DNA from: Mollicutes bacterium
GTDB lineage: Bacteria; Bacillota_I; Bacilli_A; Izemoplasmatales; Izemoplasmataceae
Length of the DNA: 64,000 bases
Assembly (NCBI GenBank): GCA_003554025.1
Contig: PWFC01000083.1
Location: 1-64,000, forward strand
Direction of reading: 5' to 3'
Made by a program: the position numbers and the translations under genes. Shown piece after piece: positions 3,531 to 12,663 of this stretch. The notes under the pieces were generated by a model, which saw only the letters and a list, made by a program, of their open reading frames with translations, was not told where the DNA came from and searched no databases. Positions within the stretch are counted from its first letter, which is position 1. Every line of letters begins with the position of its first letter.

Positions 3531-5222
3531 ATGCAAAAAGAAAAGGAACGTCAACAACAATACACAGAGCGTCAAATCGAGATGGAGAACAAGCTTTACA
3601 GTAGAAATTTCACAAAGTGCGGGTTTGACTTGAATCCTTTTGTGTCCTTTACAACGGGCATTTTGGTGTTGGTTTTCATTGTGTACGCGGTGGTCGCAAA
3701 CGCCGGCTTATTCGGTCTTGCACCTGCCGATGAAACCTTGCAAAACATGAGACAGTGGGTTGTTTCGAACACGGATTGGGTGTTTGTTTTCGCGGTGAAC
3801 TTCTTCATCGCGCTGTCTGTGTTCTTAGCGTTTTCCAAACTCGGCCGCGTGCGACTGGGCGGCATGAAGGCGAAGCCGGAGTTCTCGAACTTCGCTTGGT
3901 ATTCCATGTTGATCAGCGCCGGCATGGGCATCGGGCTTATGTTTTGGGCGGTCGGCGAACCGCTTACGCACGCTCAAGAAGGGACGCCTATTTTCGGGGG
4001 TGTGGATTCCTATGTTTCCGCGCTTGCGTCAACCTTTTTGCATTGGGGGTTTCACGCTTGGGCGATTTATGCCATCATGGCGCTTTCTTTAGCCCATTTC
4101 GCTTACAACAAGAAACTCCCGCTTTCTTTGCGGTCAATATTTTACCCGATATTCAAAGAACGGGTTTTCGGCAGGCTCGGAGACATCATAGATTTAGTGG
4201 CCGTGCTTGCGACGCTTTTCGGCCTTGCGACCTCGTTGGGGCTCGGCGTGCAGCAAATAAACAGCGGCCTTGGTCATTTGACCGGCATCACGGTATCGCC
4301 TCTTATGCAAGTTGTGCTGATTATCGTCATCACCGCCGTTGCGGCAATCTCCATCATATCGGGCATCGATAAAGGCGTCAAAAAGCTTTCGAAGACCAAT
4401 ATGAAACTCGCGTTTGGGTTCATGCTGGCCATCTTGATTCTTGGTCCGACGCTTTTCATTTTCCGTCTTTTCGCCAGTTCGTTCGGCACGTATTTGGCGG
4501 ACTTGCCGGCGGCCTCGTTCTTCTTGTCGCTTGCCGAAGGCTCAGAGCGGGATTGGCAGGGCGCATGGACCATCTTCTATCTCGCATGGTGGATATCATG
4601 GAGCCCTTTTGTGGGGATGTTTATCGCAAGAGTGTCCAAAGGGCGTACCATCCGTGAATTCATCATTGCGTCCTTGTTTATCCCTTCGCTTCTTTCCTTT
4701 GTTTGGTTGAGCGTATTCGCGGGCGCCGCTTTTGAAATCGATGCGGGCAATGGTGGGTTGTACGCGCTTGTTGGCGACAATTTGCCGGGTGCGCTTTTTG
4801 AACTTTTAAACATGCTTGACGTTGCGCTTTTCCAAGGAGTCGTCTCCGTCTTGCTTACATTGCTCGCTACGGGCATCATCATCTTTTTCTTCATCACCTC
4901 AAGCGATTCGGGGTCGATTGTGGTTAACGCCATCACCTCGGGCGGCAAGACTTCCACAAAATCCCGTCAACGCGTGTTTTGGGCGGTCATCGAAGGCGCG
5001 ATCGCTTCGGTGCTGATCATCATCGGAGGACAGCGCGCGCTTGAAACGCTTCAAGACGCGGTCATTTTAACGGGGCTTCCGTTTGCGCTTGTGCTTATGG
5101 CGATGAGCGTCTTATTGCTTCGGAGTTTGCAAAAGACCTACCGACGACAGAAGAGTTTGAAAGAAGAGCGAAAATTCCAAAGCCTCTTTGAAGCGACAGA
5201 CGTTACCCATTGCCACGATTGA
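3531..5222 (+). CDS. BCCT family betaine/choline/carnitine transporter
   Basis: This 563-residue integral membrane protein has twelve predicted membrane segments after a short charged N-terminus. Family hallmarks are GMGIGLMFWAVGEPLTH (near residues 126-142) and the tryptophan-rich signature with FYLAWWISWSPFVGMFIARVSKGRT (near residues 350-374). It resembles OpuD/BetT-type sodium-coupled glycine betaine uptake proteins and probably imports compatible solutes for osmoprotection; the exact substrate is not readable. The ATG at 3531 is preferred to the longer frame because it follows GAAAGGGTG and a near-consensus promoter that would lie inside the longer version. The C-terminus is short and basic. 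A strong terminator follows. A second, ABC-type betaine importer is encoded at 51.6-54.0 kb. Confidence 0.93.
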   Translation: MQKEKERQQQYTERQIEMENKLYSRNFTKCGFDLNPFVSFTTGILVLVFIVYAVVANAGLFGLAPADETLQNMRQWVVSNTDWVFVFAVNFFIALSVFLAFSKLGRVRLGGMKAKPEFSNFAWYSMLISAGMGIGLMFWAVGEPLTHAQEGTPIFGGVDSYVSALASTFLHWGFHAWAIYAIMALSLAHFAYNKKLPLSLRSIFYPIFKERVFGRLGDIIDLVAVLATLFGLATSLGLGVQQINSGLGHLTGITVSPLMQVVLIIVITAVAAISIISGIDKGVKKLSKTNMKLAFGFMLAILILGPTLFIFRLFASSFGTYLADLPAASFFLSLAEGSERDWQGAWTIFYLAWWISWSPFVGMFIARVSKGRTIREFIIASLFIPSLLSFVWLSVFAGAAFEIDAGNGGLYALVGDNLPGALFELLNMLDVALFQGVVSVLLTLLATGIIIFFFITSSDSGSIVVNAITSGGKTSTKSRQRVFWAVIEGAIASVLIIIGGQRALETLQDAVILTGLPFALVLMAMSVLLLRSLQKTYRRQKSLKEERKFQSLFEATDVTHCHD

Positions 5223-5251
5223 CCTTATGCTAGATAGATACTTGAATTATG

Positions 5252-5287
5252 AAGCGATGGCCAAGAAACGTTTGGCCATCGCTTTTT
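5252..5287 (+). terminator. Intrinsic terminator after BCCT gene
   Basis: A 13-bp perfect stem (AAGCGATGGCCAA with TTGGCCATCGCTT) runs into T residues, 30 bases past the stop. Confidence 0.9.
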
Positions 5288-5392
5288 TGTGGAATGATCA
5301 AGATAAAATATCGTTTTGTCGTTCTTTATGGTACATTATAGAAGAGCGATGCGCATGCCCTAGACAAAATTAAGAACGCAAAGAGGTGTGAC

Positions 5393-6214
5393 ATGATAGA
5401 ATGTCGTATAGATAAGAATTCTGCGTACAGTGAAAAAATCAAGAAGATGTTGCGCGCGCACAATGTGCGATTCACCGGGCCGGTCTCATTGGAAGAACGT
5501 CATTTCTATATAGAGGAAAAAGGCGAGCTTCTCGGCGCTTTGAAAGTACGTTGCTTTTGGGATTGGGCGACAATCGGAGAAGTGTATTATGAGAACTTGT
5601 CGATTTTAAGTGCGTTGGTTTGGGAGGCTTGGAGGCATTTTGGTCAAAAAGCTGTGGGGATGAAATTTTTCACGCCCGTTAAATCACGCTTTGAGGATTT
5701 TCTTGAAGTCGGTTTTTCTACCGTTGCAACGGTGCAAAATGTCGGAGGATTCGATTACTACTACGCCGACTTGTGCAACAAAAACGTCGTCGAAACACAT
5801 TCTTTTCCTATCCGCAACGTTTCCGAACTCCCGCAAAAATATCGCAAGCGATTGGCGAAGCACACCCGTTCATTCAACGAACGCCACGGCATAGAAGGCC
5901 TCTTTGACACAGTGCAAATCGTCGCGCTTGAAAAAGAAACGTTCCTTGGCGGCGTGCAATGCGAGGTGTATAGCAACACAATGCACATAACACGCTTGGT
6001 CGTTGATGCGAACTACCGCAACCGCGCGATTGGAAAAACGTTGATAGATAGGGTGCTTGAGGAGGCTTTGAAGCGGAAGGTCGGTGCGGTCGAACTCGGG
6101 ACCACCGATTTCCAAGGTCGAGCCTTTTATGAAAAACAAGGCTTCGAAGTGGTCCATACTAGAAAAGACAATCCGAAAGGATTTGACAGTCACACGATGA
6201 TAAAAAGACTGTGA
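5393..6214 (+). CDS. GNAT acetyltransferase with extended N-terminal domain
   Basis: This 273-residue protein has a clear GNAT domain in the C-terminal half: HITRLVVDANYRNRAIGKTL (about residues 198-217) is the acyl-CoA binding motif A, and FYEKQGFEVVHT is motif B. The first 130 residues contain a second, degenerate alpha/beta region (LLGALKVRCFWDWATIGEVYYE) that may be a decayed GNAT repeat. That reading is tentative. The start follows AGAGGTGTGAC. The gene is monocistronic between two terminators. The acceptor is unknown. Confidence 0.8.
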   Translation: MIECRIDKNSAYSEKIKKMLRAHNVRFTGPVSLEERHFYIEEKGELLGALKVRCFWDWATIGEVYYENLSILSALVWEAWRHFGQKAVGMKFFTPVKSRFEDFLEVGFSTVATVQNVGGFDYYYADLCNKNVVETHSFPIRNVSELPQKYRKRLAKHTRSFNERHGIEGLFDTVQIVALEKETFLGGVQCEVYSNTMHITRLVVDANYRNRAIGKTLIDRVLEEALKRKVGAVELGTTDFQGRAFYEKQGFEVVHTRKDNPKGFDSHTMIKRL

Positions 6215-6276: not shown

Positions 6277-6328
6277 AAAAAATCCCCTTAAAACGGGTCG
6301 CATTCAAGCGCACCCGCTGCAAGGGGAT
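6277..6328 (-). terminator. Intrinsic terminator of the encapsulin operon
   Basis: Read on the minus strand, ATCCCCTT at the right pairs with AAGGGGAT at the left around an inner GC-rich hairpin, and the stem ends in a U-run. It lies just downstream of the encapsulin stop. Confidence 0.8.
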
Positions 6329-6349: not shown

Positions 6350-7147
6350 CTACTCGGTGTCGAAGGCGATGACGATGTCCTCATCGAGGCACCGGAAGGT
6401 GAAACTGTTCATGATGAAAAGGCGTATGGTTTCTGCGTTGTGCTGTTCATAACCGATGCTGTAGTCTTGTCCGATGGTCATTTCTAAATCCTCGTGGTCG
6501 CGTGGGATTAAAAACGCTCCTTTTAAGACTCTTGAGCGGATAACTTCGCCGCCGATAATCGCTTCGGCGCTGTGGCGAACAAGACCGCCTTCATGCATTT
6601 GGTTCAGTATTGTCAAGAGTTCATCGGATACGATCAAATCGTAAGGCGGTTCGGTGTATGCGTCTTTCAATTTGTATACGGCTTCTGAAAGCGCGCCTAG
6701 TATTTCGTTGGGGTTTTGGCTGAGTTTGAGACGGTGGCCGGCAACATCGTTCAAACCTTTGATGTTTGCGTTTTTGTTGCCGTTATAAAGCGTGTCTTCT
6801 TCATAAAGCGCCAATTTTTCCGCCGCTTTTTCTAAGGGGTCTAGTTCGGCGTCTTTTTCGCCGCGCAAGATGTTGTCGAGTTCCCAACGGGAAAGATCGA
6901 AAGAAATGCGTGTTTCGATCAACGGTTTCACATCGTATAGACCGGTGTTGACTTCGCCTTTTTTGCCTTCTTTGATTGAGGTCAACCGGCCATGGCCGAC
7001 GCTATTTTTTTCTAGTCCGTGAGGGCCGTCGACATGCAAGACATGACGGGCGCTCAATTGCGATTGGATGACTTCTTTGGCACGGTCGTTGATCTCTTCC
7101 CAAGCTTCGCTCGGGATGGGTGCCAGGTTTTGTTTTAACAAATCCAT
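6350..7147 (-). CDS. Family 1 encapsulin shell protein
   Basis: This 265-residue protein is the usual length for a family 1 (linocin/HK97-fold) encapsulin protomer. It begins with the cargo-peptide-binding N-terminal helix pattern (LAPIPSEAWEEINDRAKEVIQSQL). It continues with the P-domain/E-loop region (IETRISFDLSRWELDNILRG, near 82-101) and the A-domain segment (YDLIVSDELL near 164-173, then a loop and GAFLIPRD near 210). It should self-assemble into an icosahedral protein nanocompartment in the cytosol. The gene lies ten bases after the ferritin-like cargo gene, in the same operon, with AGGAGG before its start. A terminator follows. The assignment rests on whole-length resemblance plus the cargo neighbour. 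The physical size of the shell cannot be read here. Confidence 0.92.
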   Translation of the reverse strand: MDLLKQNLAPIPSEAWEEINDRAKEVIQSQLSARHVLHVDGPHGLEKNSVGHGRLTSIKEGKKGEVNTGLYDVKPLIETRISFDLSRWELDNILRGEKDAELDPLEKAAEKLALYEEDTLYNGNKNANIKGLNDVAGHRLKLSQNPNEILGALSEAVYKLKDAYTEPPYDLIVSDELLTILNQMHEGGLVRHSAEAIIGGEVIRSRVLKGAFLIPRDHEDLEMTIGQDYSIGYEQHNAETIRLFIMNSFTFRCLDEDIVIAFDTE

Positions 7148-7157
7148 ACAACGCCTC

Positions 7158-7505
7158 CTAACGTTTCAATTTGCCGATATTGAGACTTTTGTTGCCTTCG
7201 TCGTCTTCGCCCTCGTCATCGTGGTGACCGATGGGGCCTTCTTTGAAGAGGTTTTCTCTAAGTTCTTCATCGAGTTCCGGGAGTTGGCGCCGCAACCATT
7301 CGATGCCCATAGCTGCATGCTCCAATTCTTCGTCACGGTTGTGTTTCAAAATGTCGTAGACTTCTTTGTCTTTGGTGGCGCTCATGCGTTGATTGTACCA
7401 ATCAACGGCTTCAAATTCTTCCATGACGCTTTTGATTACCCGGGTGATGTCTCGGGTTTTTTCATCAAGCAGTTCGATTGGTTCATGATATTGATCCGTT
7501 GCCAT
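7158..7505 (-). CDS. Encapsulated ferritin-like protein (EncFtn) with cargo-loading peptide
   Basis: This 115-residue protein has two helices like encapsulated ferritins. The first helix carries EEFEAVDWYNQR (near residues 29-40) and the second carries EELEHAAMGIEWL (near residues 60-72). Together they supply the Glu, Glu and ExxH iron ligands of the decameric EncFtn ferroxidase. An acidic, His-containing linker (GHHDDEGEDDEG) leads to a C-terminal tail SLNIGKLKR. This tail matches the short hydrophobic cargo-loading peptides that dock EncFtn inside encapsulins. The start at 7505 has GGAGGG upstream; the longer frame does not. It oxidises Fe(II) and feeds mineral into the shell encoded next door. 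The promoter overlaps a Per/Fur-like palindrome, consistent with iron or peroxide control. Confidence 0.92.
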   Translation of the reverse strand: MATDQYHEPIELLDEKTRDITRVIKSVMEEFEAVDWYNQRMSATKDKEVYDILKHNRDEELEHAAMGIEWLRRQLPELDEELRENLFKEGPIGHHDDEGEDDEGNKSLNIGKLKR

Positions 7506-7545
7506 AAAATCCCTCCAACTCATAAAATGGTGACATCAATGTGTC

Positions 7546-7560
7546 TTATACTCAGTATAA
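7546..7560. promoter_or_regulatory. Per/Fur-like 7-1-7 palindrome over the EncFtn -10 box
   Basis: TTATACTCAGTATAA is a perfect inverted repeat with one central base. The known PerR box is TTATAATnATTATAA, and this site matches 12 of its 14 defined positions. It overlaps the -10 hexamer of the encapsulin operon promoter, an ideal place for repression. The regulator is not in the window. Confidence 0.65.
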
Positions 7561-7582
7561 CATGGAATTGAGGGCGTCTCAA
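7554..7582 (-). promoter_or_regulatory. Promoter of the encapsulin operon
   Basis: On the minus strand TTGAGA (7582-7577), a 17-base spacer and TATACT (7559-7554) lie about 50 bases before the EncFtn start. Confidence 0.75.
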
Positions 7583-7802: not shown

Positions 7803-8525
7803 ATGACAACCATCGACAAATCCAGCCGCCTTCCGCTTTATTATCAACTCGTTGAGATCTTGGTCAAAGAAATACAAGAAGGCAATTACCTTGAAAACGA
7901 AAAGATTCCCTCCGAACGAGCACTTTGCGATATTTATGGCGTAAGTCGTGTGACGGTTCGCCATGCGGTTGAAGAGCTCGTCGATATGGGCTTGCTTGAA
8001 AAGCGTCATGGCGATGGAACGTATGTTTCATCGAAAATGAACCAGGATTTGTTGTCGTTTTACAGTTTTACCGAGGAAATGAAAAAAATCGGTCGAAACC
8101 CATGGTCAAAAGTTCTCGGCTTCGAATACATAAAAGCCGATGAAAAAATCTCCAGGAAGCACGGGTGCGCTCTCCATGACCCCGTTATCCAGATTATACG
8201 TCTTCGCATGGCAGACGATACGCCCATGATGTATGAACGCACCTACCTTCCCAAGAATCGTTTTCCTTCGTTGCACCGGGACGATATCGAGAACAATCCC
8301 ATGTACGATGTTTTTCGGGATAAGTTCGATGTCAGCTTTTCCAGAGCGGAAGAGGTATTGAAACCGGTCACGACCCGCGATTATGAAGCGGAATTGTTGG
8401 AAATCAACCAAGCGGTTCCTAGTATGATGATCGAACGCTCCACCTACGAAGGAGAAACCATCATCGAATACACCATCAGCATAGCCCGCGGAGATCAGTT
8501 CAATTATAGAGTGGTTCTTGAATAA
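7803..8525 (+). CDS. GntR/HutC family regulator with UTRA domain (NagR-like)
   Basis: This 240-residue regulator has an N-terminal winged helix-turn-helix (residues 6-72, with the family pattern LPLYYQLVEILVKEIQEGNY and PSERALCDIYGVSRVTVRHA). A C-terminal UTRA effector domain (about residues 90-240) carries IIRLRMADDTPMMYERTYLP. NagR/DasR/AgaR-type members bind amino-sugar phosphates. The downstream genes are amino-sugar catabolic, so a hexosamine-6-phosphate is the likely inducer. Tandem TGGTATTAA repeats lie in its own promoter. It is followed by agaS after 88 bases that carry a TATAAT box. Confidence 0.9.
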   Translation: MTTIDKSSRLPLYYQLVEILVKEIQEGNYLENEKIPSERALCDIYGVSRVTVRHAVEELVDMGLLEKRHGDGTYVSSKMNQDLLSFYSFTEEMKKIGRNPWSKVLGFEYIKADEKISRKHGCALHDPVIQIIRLRMADDTPMMYERTYLPKNRFPSLHRDDIENNPMYDVFRDKFDVSFSRAEEVLKPVTTRDYEAELLEINQAVPSMMIERSTYEGETIIEYTISIARGDQFNYRVVLE

Positions 8526-8613
8526 CGTTTGCATAGACTATGTTTTTTTGGACAAATTGGGTATAACGTCCTAACCACAAGACGCTATAATAAATGCAGA
8601 AAGGGGATAACAT

Positions 8614-9756
8614 ATGGTATCGTACGAAGAGCACACAACCTATCGGGAAATCCAGCAACAACCTAGATTATGGCGAGAAACATTGGAAATTATCGACAAG
8701 AACCGTGGAGAGATAGAAGATTTTATGAAACGAGCGTTGAATAGCGATTCGCTTCGAGTGATTCTCTCAGGCGCCGGCAGTTCCGCTTACATCGGTGAAA
8801 CGGTCGCCCCTCATATCAATCGCTCGACCCGTTTTGATGTTGAAGCGGTTGCGACGACGGACATAGTCGCCGCGCCGGAATCGTATTTGCGGAAAAAGAA
8901 GCCCACTTTGTTGGTGTCTTACGCTCGTTCCGGAAACAGCCCCGAAAGCGAAGGGACCTTCGATCTTGTCAACGAAATCGTGGACGAAACCTACCACATT
9001 GTGTTGACTTGCAATCGTGAAGGACGTTTGGCGAAAAAAGGCGAAGCCAATCAAAACGCTTTGGTTCTATATATGCCTGAGGACGCCAACGACCAAGGAC
9101 TCGCCATGACCGGCAGTTTTTCGACCATGGCGCTTGCTTCGCTTTTGATGTTCGATTTGGACGATTTCTCAAAGCACCGCTCAATCGTGGAAAACATTGC
9201 CCGATTCGGCGAAGACATGATGCGTTCAAAGCAGTTAGAAGAAGTCGCCGAACTTGGCTTTGAAAAGGCGGTGTATCTCGGGTCCTCCCATTTCAAGGGA
9301 TTGGCGAAAGAAGCGGAGTTGAAGATGCTTGAATTGACGGCCGGCCGGATTGCGACACGTTCCGACACGCCTCTTGGTTTCCGCCACGGACCGAAATCGT
9401 TCATTGATGATAAAACTATGGTTTTGCTGTTCCTCTCGGGCGAAACTTACACGCAGCGATACGAAAAAGATTTGCTTGATGAACTCGAACAAGACGGAAT
9501 GACGACGGATATTGTCATTGGACGAGATGAGAATCGTGAAAACGTTTTGGCTGATGTTTACATCGGCCTTTCCGGTGAAACAAAAACCATTCCGGATGCG
9601 TTTTTGTCGCTTCCCTATTTGATAGCCGCTCAGCGACTTGCGTTTTTGAGGTCTTACAAGCAAGGCGTCGATCCGGACAACCCCAGTCCCGATGGCGTAA
9701 TCAATCGCGTTGTAAAAGGCGTAACACTATATCCCTACGAGAAAGAAGGTTCGTGA
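8614..9756 (+). CDS. agaS: AgaS-type SIS-domain amino-sugar-phosphate deaminase/isomerase
   Basis: This 380-residue protein has two SIS domains (about residues 40-175 and 215-350). The first contains VILSGAGSSAYIGE and LLVSYARSGNSPES, the phosphosugar-binding SIS signatures. NDQGLAMTGSFSTM, near residues 158-171, is characteristic of AgaS proteins. AgaS converts galactosamine-6-phosphate to tagatose-6-phosphate with release of ammonia. It is the first structural gene of the cluster, one base before the PTS IIA gene, so translation is probably coupled. Neighbouring aldolase, kinase and deacetylase genes complete a GalNAc/GalN route. A role on glucosamine-6-phosphate cannot be excluded from sequence. 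Confidence 0.88.
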   Translation: MVSYEEHTTYREIQQQPRLWRETLEIIDKNRGEIEDFMKRALNSDSLRVILSGAGSSAYIGETVAPHINRSTRFDVEAVATTDIVAAPESYLRKKKPTLLVSYARSGNSPESEGTFDLVNEIVDETYHIVLTCNREGRLAKKGEANQNALVLYMPEDANDQGLAMTGSFSTMALASLLMFDLDDFSKHRSIVENIARFGEDMMRSKQLEEVAELGFEKAVYLGSSHFKGLAKEAELKMLELTAGRIATRSDTPLGFRHGPKSFIDDKTMVLLFLSGETYTQRYEKDLLDELEQDGMTTDIVIGRDENRENVLADVYIGLSGETKTIPDAFLSLPYLIAAQRLAFLRSYKQGVDPDNPSPDGVINRVVKGVTLYPYEKEGS

Positions 9757-9757
9757 C

Positions 9758-10207
9758 ATGTCTGAAATCGTTAAAAAACATATGATTCAAACGCATGTTG
9801 AACCGAAAGACTGGAAAGAAGCCGCAAAATTGTCGGGAAAACTGCTTTTGGACAATGGTTACATCGAAGAGGGGTATATAAACAAGATGATCGAGACTGT
9901 TGAAAGTTATGGTATGTACATTTTAGTGGCTCCGGGCGTTGCGTTTTTCCACGCACGGCCCGAACATGGCGCCAAAAAGACGGGGCTCAGTCTGATTACC
10001 TCATATAAGGGCGTTGAATTCGGGGTAGAAGACAAAGATCCGGTGAAACTCATGTTTGCGATGTCGGCCACCGACAAGAACTCCCATCTCGATCTTCTAT
10101 CCGGCTTGAGCAAAGTTTTGCAGGATTCTGAAACCATAGACCGGCTCGCAGAAGCTAAAACGCCGGAAGCGGTTCAAGAAATTTTAAAATCCAAAAGGCA
10201 GGAGTGA
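9758..10207 (+). CDS. PTS IIA component, ascorbate/fructose-mannitol type
   Basis: This 149-residue EIIA domain has the phosphorylation motif PGVAFFHARPEHG with His65 as the expected phospho-site and His70 nearby. Together with the following IIB and IIC genes it makes a complete separate-subunit EII of the L-ascorbate (Sga/Ula) family. It takes phosphate from HPr and passes it to the IIB cysteine. Its neighbours are AgaS upstream (one-base gap) and an SIS protein downstream (four-base gap). The substrate, judged by context, is an amino sugar rather than ascorbate. Confidence 0.88.
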   Translation: MSEIVKKHMIQTHVEPKDWKEAAKLSGKLLLDNGYIEEGYINKMIETVESYGMYILVAPGVAFFHARPEHGAKKTGLSLITSYKGVEFGVEDKDPVKLMFAMSATDKNSHLDLLSGLSKVLQDSETIDRLAEAKTPEAVQEILKSKRQE

Positions 10208-10211
10208 GAGA

Positions 10212-10946
10212 ATGTTGTATAAGGACTACATGAGCAAAGTAAAGGAAATTTTTGAAGATGTCGAAAAAACACAAGCAAAAAACATTGAGAAAGCGGCGGA
10301 CATAGTCGCCGAATCGATTCGAAACGATGGCGTCTTGCACGTCTTCGGTTGCGGCCATTCTCAGATGTATGCGATGGAAGTGTTTTACCGCGCGGGTGGA
10401 TTGGTTCCGGTAAACGCCATTTTGAATCCGGCAATGGCGCTTGCGCCAAAAGCCCCATTGAGCACACATGGCGAACGCCAAGAAGGCATGGCCAAGGCCA
10501 TTTTGGACAACGAGACCGTACATGAACAAGACGTCATGCTCGTTGCCTCGACTTCCGCGCGAAACCCGGCGCCAATCGAGATGGCGAAGGAAGCCAAGGA
10601 GCGAGGCTTGAAAGTCATCACGTTGCTCTCTGAAGATTTTGCCCGTTCTGTAGAAAGCCGCCATCCTTCCGGTAAGAAGACCTACGATTTCGCCGATGTC
10701 GTGTTGGACAACCGCGGCGTTTCGGGCGATGCCGTGATGGAAATTGACGAACTCAAGACCAAGTTCGGACCGACGTCCTCCATCATCGGCTTTACCATCA
10801 TTCAATCCATCGTGGTTGAAACCATTGACAAGTTGGCCAAGTCCGGGTATGAACCACCGATTTGGGTCAGTTCGAACCTTGACGAAGGCGACGCCATCAA
10901 CAAGAAACACATTAAAAAATATAGAAAACGAATCAGCTGTCTCTGA
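10212..10946 (+). CDS. SIS-domain sugar-phosphate-binding protein (UPF0309-like)
   Basis: This 244-residue single SIS-domain protein carries LHVFGCGHSQMYAMEVFYRAGG (near residues 41-62), typical of UPF0309 proteins related to MurQ/GmhA. A second segment (MLVASTSARNPAPIEMAKEA near 112-131) forms the phosphate site. Length and motifs match UPF0309 members, which lack an assigned reaction. Its place between PTS IIA and IIB genes ties it to metabolism of the imported phosphosugar. It may act as an isomerase, an etherase-like lyase or a second deaminase. It is clearly distinct from AgaS, so the operon has two SIS proteins. Confidence 0.82.
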   Translation: MLYKDYMSKVKEIFEDVEKTQAKNIEKAADIVAESIRNDGVLHVFGCGHSQMYAMEVFYRAGGLVPVNAILNPAMALAPKAPLSTHGERQEGMAKAILDNETVHEQDVMLVASTSARNPAPIEMAKEAKERGLKVITLLSEDFARSVESRHPSGKKTYDFADVVLDNRGVSGDAVMEIDELKTKFGPTSSIIGFTIIQSIVVETIDKLAKSGYEPPIWVSSNLDEGDAINKKHIKKYRKRISCL

Positions 10947-10980
10947 TGAAAGGCATGTCCTATAGAAAGGGGGAACATAG

Positions 10981-11259
10981 ATGAAAATAGTCGCAGTTTG
11001 CGGACTCGGCATGGGCTCGAGCATGATGCTCAAAATGTCCATTGAAGACGCATTGAACAAAGCGAACATCAAAGCCGATCTTGAAAGCGCGGATCTTGGT
11101 TCTGCGAAAAGCATGAACGCCGACATTTACGTGCTTTCTGCCGACCTTTCAAAGAATGTTGAGGAGTTCAGCGGAGAAGTCATCATCATCAAGAATCTCT
11201 CCGATTCTGAGGAAGTCAAGGATAAGCTGCTCAAGGCTTTGGAAAAAATGGAATCATAA
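10981..11259 (+). CDS. PTS IIB component, ascorbate (SgaB/UlaB) type
   Basis: This 92-residue protein begins MKIVAVCGLGMGSSMMLK. Cys7 within CGLGMGSS is the phospho-acceptor of the IIB Sga/lactose-like fold. It relays phosphate from IIA to sugar entering through IIC. A strong AAAGGGGG ribosome site precedes it, and the IIC start follows 30 bases after its stop. Confidence 0.88.
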   Translation: MKIVAVCGLGMGSSMMLKMSIEDALNKANIKADLESADLGSAKSMNADIYVLSADLSKNVEEFSGEVIIIKNLSDSEEVKDKLLKALEKMES

Positions 11260-11289
11260 AAAAATAAATAAATAGGAGGAGTTTCACGT

Positions 11290-12663
11290 ATGTATGATTT
11301 CCTGACTGAATTTTTCACCACGCCTGCGATTTTGCTTGGTGTGGTCGCACTCATCGGACTCATTGTTCAGCGGAAAAGAGTAGAAAACATTGTCGCAGGG
11401 ACTTTCAAGACCATCTTGGGTTTCTTGATTCTTTCCGCCGGTGTCGATCTCATTGTTCAAAACCTGGCACCATTCGCGGACATCTTCGTTGAAGGTTTTG
11501 GCATTTCCGGCGTAGTTCCCTTCGACGAGGCGGTTGTCGGCGCGCTTTCCGATAGCGTCGCGCAAATTGCCCGCACCACGGCCCTCATTCTTGGCTTTGG
11601 TTTCTTGGTGAATGTTCTTATCGCGCGCATCACGCCGTTTAAGTACATTTTCCTAACCGGCCATATGATGTGGATTCTTGCCGGTGGTCTTGCGTGGGCA
11701 TTCTACGACCTCGGCGTTAGTGAAACCAACACCGTCATCTTCGGTTCATTGCTCCAAGGTGCAATTCTTACGCTCTTGCCGGCCATCGCGCAACCGTTTA
11801 TGCGGAAAATCACCGGCGAAGACAAAATCGCCTATGGCCACCTGACCACTTTGGGTGTTGTTATTTCCGCGCTTGTCGGTAAGCAGTTCGGCAACACGGA
11901 AAAGGACAGCGAAGAAGTCAACGTACCTGAAAGACTAGGCTTCTTGAAAGACACCGCCATTTCTGTTTCCATCGTTATGGTTTTGGTGTATTTGATCACC
12001 GTTATTGCCGCAGGACCCGCTTTTGTGGCAGACTTTGCAGGAGAACAGCATTACTTGCTTTTTGCCATTCTTAGAGGTCTTGGTTTCGCGGCAGGCGTAC
12101 TCGTCTTGCTCTATGGTGTCCGCATGTTCCTTGCGGAAATCATTCCAGCATTCCGCGGTATCGCGCTTAAGATTGTACCAGGCGCACGCCCCGCGCTTGA
12201 CGTACCCGTACTGTTCAACTATGCGCCCAAAGCCCTTATGATCGGCTTTATCGCCGCATTCTTCGGAACGCTCGCCGGCCTTGCCCTGTCCATTCCGATT
12301 GGCACGGTCATCCCCGTTCCTTCCATCATCGGCGCGTTCTTTACAGGCGGCGCAGCAGGCATCTTCGGCAACGCAGTCGGCGGACGTCGCGGCGCAGCCA
12401 TTTCCGGTTTTGTTTACGGCATCTTGTTGGCCGTTCCCGTTGCGCTATTCTATCCGCTTTATGAGCTCGTCGGTTACGGCGTTGAAGGACTTGCCTATCT
12501 AGTCAGCGACGGCATTACCGCACTCAGCTTAATCAAGCTCTTCTTCGTACTCGGTGTGCCTGTCATTGGTCTGATTCTCTTCATCGGCGGCATCATCGCA
12601 CTTAGCGTTCGCTTCCGCGGTGCGAAAAAAGGCGACTTGCTCGAAGAAGCAAAAGAAGAGTAA
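11290..12663 (+). CDS. PTS IIC permease, ascorbate (SgaT/UlaA) family
   Basis: This 457-residue membrane permease has about eleven hydrophobic segments, the usual length for UlaA/SgaT IIC proteins. The N-terminus (FLTEFFTTPAILLGVVALIGL) and the internal GHMMWILAGGLAWAFYDLG segment match the family. Known members import L-ascorbate, but this gene sits among galactosamine catabolic genes with a NagR-like regulator. An N-acetylated or free hexosamine, or a disaccharide containing it, is therefore the more likely substrate. The ribosome site is AGGAGG. A strong terminator follows directly, which should lower expression of the genes downstream. Confidence 0.9.
   Translation: MYDFLTEFFTTPAILLGVVALIGLIVQRKRVENIVAGTFKTILGFLILSAGVDLIVQNLAPFADIFVEGFGISGVVPFDEAVVGALSDSVAQIARTTALILGFGFLVNVLIARITPFKYIFLTGHMMWILAGGLAWAFYDLGVSETNTVIFGSLLQGAILTLLPAIAQPFMRKITGEDKIAYGHLTTLGVVISALVGKQFGNTEKDSEEVNVPERLGFLKDTAISVSIVMVLVYLITVIAAGPAFVADFAGEQHYLLFAILRGLGFAAGVLVLLYGVRMFLAEIIPAFRGIALKIVPGARPALDVPVLFNYAPKALMIGFIAAFFGTLAGLALSIPIGTVIPVPSIIGAFFTGGAAGIFGNAVGGRRGAAISGFVYGILLAVPVALFYPLYELVGYGVEGLAYLVSDGITALSLIKLFFVLGVPVIGLILFIGGIIALSVRFRGAKKGDLLEEAKEE

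What the first reader, a model, noticed from the sequence alone, without database searches (positions are those of the whole stretch)
6350..7505. Encapsulin iron-storage compartment with its own cargo peptide
A two-gene operon encodes a ferritin-like cargo ending in SLNIGKLKR and a family 1 encapsulin. The cargo has an acidic His/Asp/Glu linker before the docking tail, which could gather iron near the shell wall. The coding order is cargo then shell.
Basis: partly seen in the sequence, partly recalled or inferred. Interest (0 to 1): 0.6.

Follow-up and report, generated by a model that had tools for sequence, protein, structure and literature searches.

The report
Ordinary encapsulin with ferritin-like cargo
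This is a standard two-gene bacterial iron compartment, a ferritin-like enzyme that docks inside a virus-like protein shell, but its relatives show that the enzyme can persist after losing both its docking tail and the shell.

Summary
Window 7505-7158 (-) encodes a 115-aa encapsulated ferritin (EncFtn). Window 7147-6350 (-), 10 bases downstream, encodes a 265-aa family 1 encapsulin. Both exceed curated family cut-offs and match solved EncFtns and T=1 shells. All ferroxidase residues are present, and the tail LNIGKL fits the published targeting-peptide consensus. It is a new member of a known kind, from an Izemoplasmatales bacterium.

The idea that the His/Asp/Glu linker gathers iron at the shell wall is not supported for the histidines: the GHH motif also ends EncFtns that have no shell.

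The relatives hold the more interesting result. In this order, 28 of 28 shell genomes carry EncFtn, and 10 EncFtn genomes lack an intact shell. All nine readable shell-less EncFtns also lack the docking tail. One genome has a decayed shell pseudogene beside its EncFtn. Across bacteria, 61 of 61 short-tailed EncFtns had no shell nearby, and 15 of 17 long-tailed ones did. This argues against a published suggestion that short EncFtns might carry a hidden docking sequence (PMC11202242). They look like free-standing ferroxidases under purifying selection. The given finding itself scores low.

The parts
7158..7505 (-). EncFtn cargo gene (115 aa): two-helix ferroxidase domain (aa ~5-92), linker, docking tail
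7161..7187 (-). targeting (cargo-loading) peptide SLNIGKLKR at the cargo C-terminus; fits L-x-I/V-x-x-L/I
   Evidence: consensus in PMC11202242
7188..7229 (-). linker GHHDDEGEDDEGNK: proximal GHH shared with shell-less EncFtns, acidic part found essentially only with the docking tail
6350..7147 (-). family 1 encapsulin shell gene (265 aa), aligned full length to T=1 shells
7554..7582 (-). sigma-70-like promoter TTGAGA-17-TATACT with TG before the -10, about 50 bases before the cargo start; consensus match only, near the chance rate
6282..6328 (-). intrinsic terminator: strong hairpin followed by six T, directly after the shell gene
   Evidence: -31.3 kcal/mol, z -5.2; the pattern scan did not list it

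Best explanation
It is an EncFtn-encapsulin iron compartment. The cargo forms a ring-shaped decamer whose ferroxidase centres at dimer interfaces oxidise Fe(II). Its C-terminal LNIGKL peptide docks in the pocket on the inner face of the shell protein during assembly. The shell, probably a T=1, 60-subunit particle of about 24 nm, holds the ferric mineral that the open decamer cannot hold itself. The acidic linker is a flexible tether that keeps the decamer off the wall. Shown here: family membership, ferroxidase residues, docking motif, operon order, and co-conservation of tail and shell. Inferred from characterised homologues: decamer, shell size, docking and iron storage.
For: Curated family scores. 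Full-length or full-domain matches to solved EncFtns 3k6c and 5da5 (E 1.8e-28, 2.5e-27) and to T=1 shells of M. tuberculosis and T. maritima (E 2e-42, 4e-42), far better than to the larger shells. The R. rubrum residues E31, E32, E34, W38, Y39, E62 and H65 correspond to window E29, E30, E32, W36, Y37, E60 and H63; the Glu, Tyr and His positions are invariant and the Trp nearly so in a 14-sequence alignment. In 90 genomes of the order an intact shell never occurs without EncFtn. Long tail and shell go together across bacteria (short tail: 61 without shell, 0 with; long tail: 2 without, 15 with; p 3e-14, not corrected for kinship). Strong terminator directly after the shell.
Against: None found against the assignment. 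Assembly, loading and iron content are untested. The close relative G005 has SLNIGKPKR, with proline in place of the last leucine of the motif, and so does G067; docking there may be weaker, or the last hydrophobic residue may be dispensable.
Confidence: 0.95

Rival explanations
1. The linker is a functional iron-gathering segment: its His, Asp and Glu side chains bind Fe(II)/Fe(III) and seed mineral at the inner wall.
For: Linkers of this order are acidic, 2-9 Asp/Glu in spacers of 13-22 residues, and some are His-rich, such as GQHGHDHDHDHE in G023.
Against: The GHH start is kept in shell-less EncFtns. Distal histidines are absent in 17 of the 23 tails tabulated, the window's included. Clostridial linkers that do go with shells, such as AGIEETAMGRDTEEIPEGK, lack histidine.
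Confidence: 0.15
2. The main function is protection from peroxide and free iron rather than storage; the shell pair is a detoxifying compartment.
For: The genome has one Dps-like ferritin hit (G000:C66, E 7e-22) and no strong classical-ferritin hit. A perfect 7-1-7 palindrome TTATACTGAGTATAA, one mismatch per half-site from the PerR-type consensus, overlaps the predicted -10.
Against: The palindrome is absent from the closest sister locus (G005) and from the other upstream regions examined, so it may be chance. Storage and protection are not exclusive.
Confidence: 0.25
3. The cargo is not really housed: the shell carries something else and EncFtn is an independent neighbour.
For: EncFtn does persist without a shell in 10 genomes of the order.
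Against: Where the shell is intact an adjacent EncFtn carries a docking tail, and the tail disappears together with the shell.
Confidence: 0.02

Closest known systems
Haliangium ochraceum EncFtn-encapsulin (PDB 7oe2, 7oeu; PMC8791618)
   Same: Same cargo family, T=1-type shell family, cargo with a C-terminal LGIGSL-type peptide docked on the inner wall
   Different: Host lineage; window peptide is LNIGKLKR; linker sequence differs
Rhodospirillum rubrum EncFtn-encapsulin (PDB 5da5; PMC5012862)
   Same: All ferroxidase and entry-site residues conserved; cargo plus family 1 shell
   Different: R. rubrum cargo is longer (140 aa), with a longer disordered tail
Nitrosomonas europaea short FLP NE0167 (PDB 3k6c)
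   Same: Best-scoring solved match to the cargo core (E 1.8e-28)
   Different: Short class without targeting peptide; the window cargo has the tail and a shell
Thermotoga maritima encapsulin (PDB 3dkt)
   Same: Family 1 T=1 shell, full-length alignment
   Different: T. maritima cargo tail is GGDLGIRK-type (PMC7925596)

Membership tests
EncFtn (encapsulated ferritin, FLP-TP class) | EncFtn-like domain above curated cut-off | tested here: met
   PF22277 125.5 bits (cut-off 27), TIGR04535 133.1 (cut-off 125)
EncFtn (encapsulated ferritin, FLP-TP class) | Ferroxidase residues of R. rubrum E32, E62, H65 (and E31, E34, W38, Y39) | tested here: met
   window E30, E60, H63 (and E29, E32, W36, Y37)
EncFtn (encapsulated ferritin, FLP-TP class) | Disordered tail ending in L(F)xV(I)xxL(I) | tested here: met
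   LNIGKL in the window; consensus
EncFtn (encapsulated ferritin, FLP-TP class) | Annular decamer with ferroxidase activity | not testable with these tools
   needs protein work
Family 1 encapsulin shell | Linocin_M18 / encap_f1 profile above cut-off over full length | tested here: met
   PF04454 238.6 bits, aa 1-250; NF041155 235.9 bits (cut-off 100)
Family 1 encapsulin shell | Cargo gene with targeting peptide adjacent | tested here: met
   10-base gap, same strand
Family 1 encapsulin shell | T=1, 60-subunit assembly | not testable with these tools
   closest solved shells by sequence are T=1; the assembly itself was not tested
s-FLP (short EncFtn without targeting peptide), for the shell-less relatives, not the window | About 95 aa, no targeting peptide, EncFtn domain | tested here: met
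   G028, G061 and Marinobacter L112 score 132-144 bits to PF22277, 95-96 aa; tails of 4-6 aa
s-FLP (short EncFtn without targeting peptide), for the shell-less relatives, not the window | No family 1 shell in the genome | tested here: met
   17 genomes reached through loci and 9 of the order have no intact NF041155/PF04454 match; 3 of 3 long-tailed control genomes do. One, G443, has a family 2A shell

The most novel reading that the evidence does not exclude
The window system is one end of a series, seen within a single bacterial order, in which EncFtn lost its docking tail and its shell and persisted as a free-standing ferroxidase, in genomes that also carry a classical ferritin. The short EncFtns known from Nitrosomonas and many other Proteobacteria would then be non-encapsulated enzymes with a job other than filling a shell, for example passing ferric iron to a classical ferritin or simply detoxifying Fe(II).
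Probability: 0.65. Interest if true: 0.45.

Novelty: new member of a known kind. Interest (0 to 1): 0.25.

Why it matters
The gene pair itself adds one more Izemoplasmatales example of a well-described iron compartment; no paper in the held library mentions Izemoplasma and encapsulin together. Its relatives matter more. A 2024 review states that it is unclear whether short EncFtns carry an undefined shell-binding sequence and lists LFTD(E/N)KPIAHE as a putative one (PMC11202242). Here that motif (LFKEGPIGHH in the window) sits upstream of a true docking peptide when a shell is present and is what remains when it is absent, which argues that it is part of the enzyme core. The order gives near-matched pairs, with tail and shell or without, in which to ask what EncFtn does on its own.

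Tried and rejected
Fur/PerR operator: a perfect palindrome overlaps the predicted -10 in the window, but it is not conserved in the closest sister or the other relatives examined, so no claim is made. A second encapsulin in the genome: none. Chance or artefactual ORFs: rejected by family scores, and by a low pairwise dN/dS for the cargo core against the sister G005 (0.03). The pattern scan found no terminator after the shell; folding showed a long one. A literature query with five terms returned nothing. Structure prediction was not run, since solved homologues at E 1e-27 to 1e-42 make it uninformative.

Full report
What is there. On the minus strand, window 7505-7158 encodes a 115-aa protein and window 7147-6350 a 265-aa protein, with 10 bases between them and a GGAGG-type ribosome site before each. 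The first scores 125.5 bits to the EncFtn-like family PF22277 and passes the NCBIfam model for encapsulin-associated ferritin-like proteins. The second scores 238.6 bits to Linocin_M18 and passes the NCBIfam model for family 1 shells. The best solved matches are Nitrosomonas 3k6c, Rhodospirillum 5da5 and Haliangium 7oe2 for the cargo, and the M. tuberculosis and T. maritima T=1 shells for the shell; larger shells match far less well. A strong intrinsic terminator follows the shell gene at 6328-6282. The divergent gene at 7803 is a GntR/UTRA regulator of a separate PTS/SIS sugar operon, with no visible tie to iron. The genome holds no other family 1 shell.

How it works. Aligned to R. rubrum EncFtn, the window cargo keeps E29, E30, E32, W36, Y37, E60 and H63, the equivalents of the ferroxidase and entry-site residues E31, E32, E34, W38, Y39, E62 and H65. 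The C-terminal LNIGKL fits the published consensus L(F)xV(I)xxL(I) (PMC11202242), and the H. ochraceum peptide LGIGSL is seen docked on the inner face of its shell (PMC8791618). EncFtn alone oxidises iron but cannot mineralise it; the shell holds the mineral (PMC5012862). I therefore take this as an ordinary EncFtn-encapsulin iron store. Assembly, loading and iron content are inferred from these homologues.

The linker. In the window the only histidines are the two in GHH, directly after the core. That motif is also at the end of the protein in relatives whose genomes have no shell (AGHHGE, AGHHGDE, AGHHH, TGHHH) and in Marinobacter (GHHD). It cannot be specific to shell storage. The acidic part is present essentially only with the docking tail, varies from genome to genome, and is best read as a tether.

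The relatives. Over 90 genomes of the order, all 28 with an intact shell carry EncFtn, and 10 carry EncFtn without an intact shell. One of the ten, G057, lies at a contig edge and cannot be read to its end. In the other nine the protein ends 4 to 12 residues after the core, whereas shell-linked copies have tails of 20 to 30 residues. Two cases stand between. G045 has an intact shell and a shortened tail ending SLKIK. G010 has two EncFtn genes in tandem, one with and one without a docking peptide, followed by the shell.

A loss caught in progress. In genus g19 the locus is syntenic: EncFtn is followed by a gene for a protein of about 650 aa beginning MPYQNKYL. G045 has an intact shell between the two. 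G046 has two shell fragments with seven in-frame stops in all, in the right place, and an EncFtn without docking peptide. G026, G028 and G032 have nothing there. G028 and G032 are single-contig genomes, so the absence is unlikely to be an assembly gap. The EncFtn core in shell-less genomes has pairwise dN/dS of 0.03-0.07, as low as in shell-bearing ones; synonymous sites are near saturation, so these values are rough. On the EncFtn tree the shell-less label needs three changes (2-4 over bootstraps), but a single loss is not formally excluded, because few branches are firm.

Outside the order. A scan of public genomes brought 80 EncFtn loci, of which 78 could be measured; a few belong to the order itself. 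All 61 with a tail under 14 residues had no shell within the fetched flanks of up to 4 kb. Of 17 with a longer tail, 15 had the shell adjacent (p 3e-14, not corrected for kinship). Some flanks are cut short by contig ends. Seventeen of the short-tailed genomes were searched whole: none has a family 1 shell, while three of three long-tailed controls do. One of the seventeen, G443 (Solimonas), has a family 2A shell; the others have neither. The review that names this class the s-FLPs says it is unclear whether they contain an undefined binding sequence and offers LFTD(E/N)KPIAHE as a putative one (PMC11202242). The data here speak against that, since there is no family 1 shell to bind and the same stretch lies upstream of the true docking peptide in shell-linked cargos.

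A correlate. In the order, a strong classical-ferritin hit (PF00210 E below 1e-30) occurs in all 10 shell-less EncFtn genomes and in 6 of 28 shell-bearing ones (p 1.7e-5). This suggests that the shell became dispensable where a ferritin cage could store the iron. The counts are not corrected for kinship, several genomes are incomplete, and half of the genomes with neither EncFtn nor shell also have the ferritin, so it is a lead and not a result.

Verdict. The finding is real and correctly named, and it is an ordinary member of a known system; I score it low. The value lies in the shell-less relatives, which turn an open remark in the literature into a testable claim.

Noticed in passing
L074 (G046:C2) 1833-2141 and about 2185-2843: EncFtn without docking peptide next to a decayed encapsulin shell pseudogene with several stops; congeners have either an intact shell (G045) or none (G026, G028, G032).
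   Followed up: yes
L089 (G010:C58) 4524-5977: Two tandem EncFtn genes, one with and one without docking peptide, followed by one shell; mixed decamers would dilute docking tails.
   Followed up: partly
order-wide: Classical ferritin is present in all 10 shell-less EncFtn genomes and in 6 of 28 shell-bearing ones.
   Followed up: partly
L112, L114, L120 and others (Marinobacter and other Proteobacteria): Short EncFtns without shell are widespread in Proteobacteria; no neighbouring shell in 61 of 61 short-tailed loci.
   Followed up: yes
window 7541-7559: Perfect 15-base 7-1-7 palindrome TTATACTGAGTATAA over the predicted -10 of the cargo promoter, resembling Fur-family boxes but absent in relatives.
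   Followed up: partly
L003 (G005) and L108 (G067), cargo C-terminus: Docking motif LNIGKP instead of LNIGKL/M in two shell-bearing genomes.
   Followed up: no
L132 and L138: Two long-tailed EncFtns without a shell in the fetched flanks; L132 ends TTVGSLKS, docking-like, L138 ends in a Lys/Pro/Ala-rich tail.
   Followed up: no
window 7803-12663: GntR/UTRA regulator, SIS protein, PTS EIIA, second SIS protein, probable EIIB and a GAT-type EIIC: a sugar or sugar-amine PTS operon divergent from the encapsulin genes.
   Followed up: no
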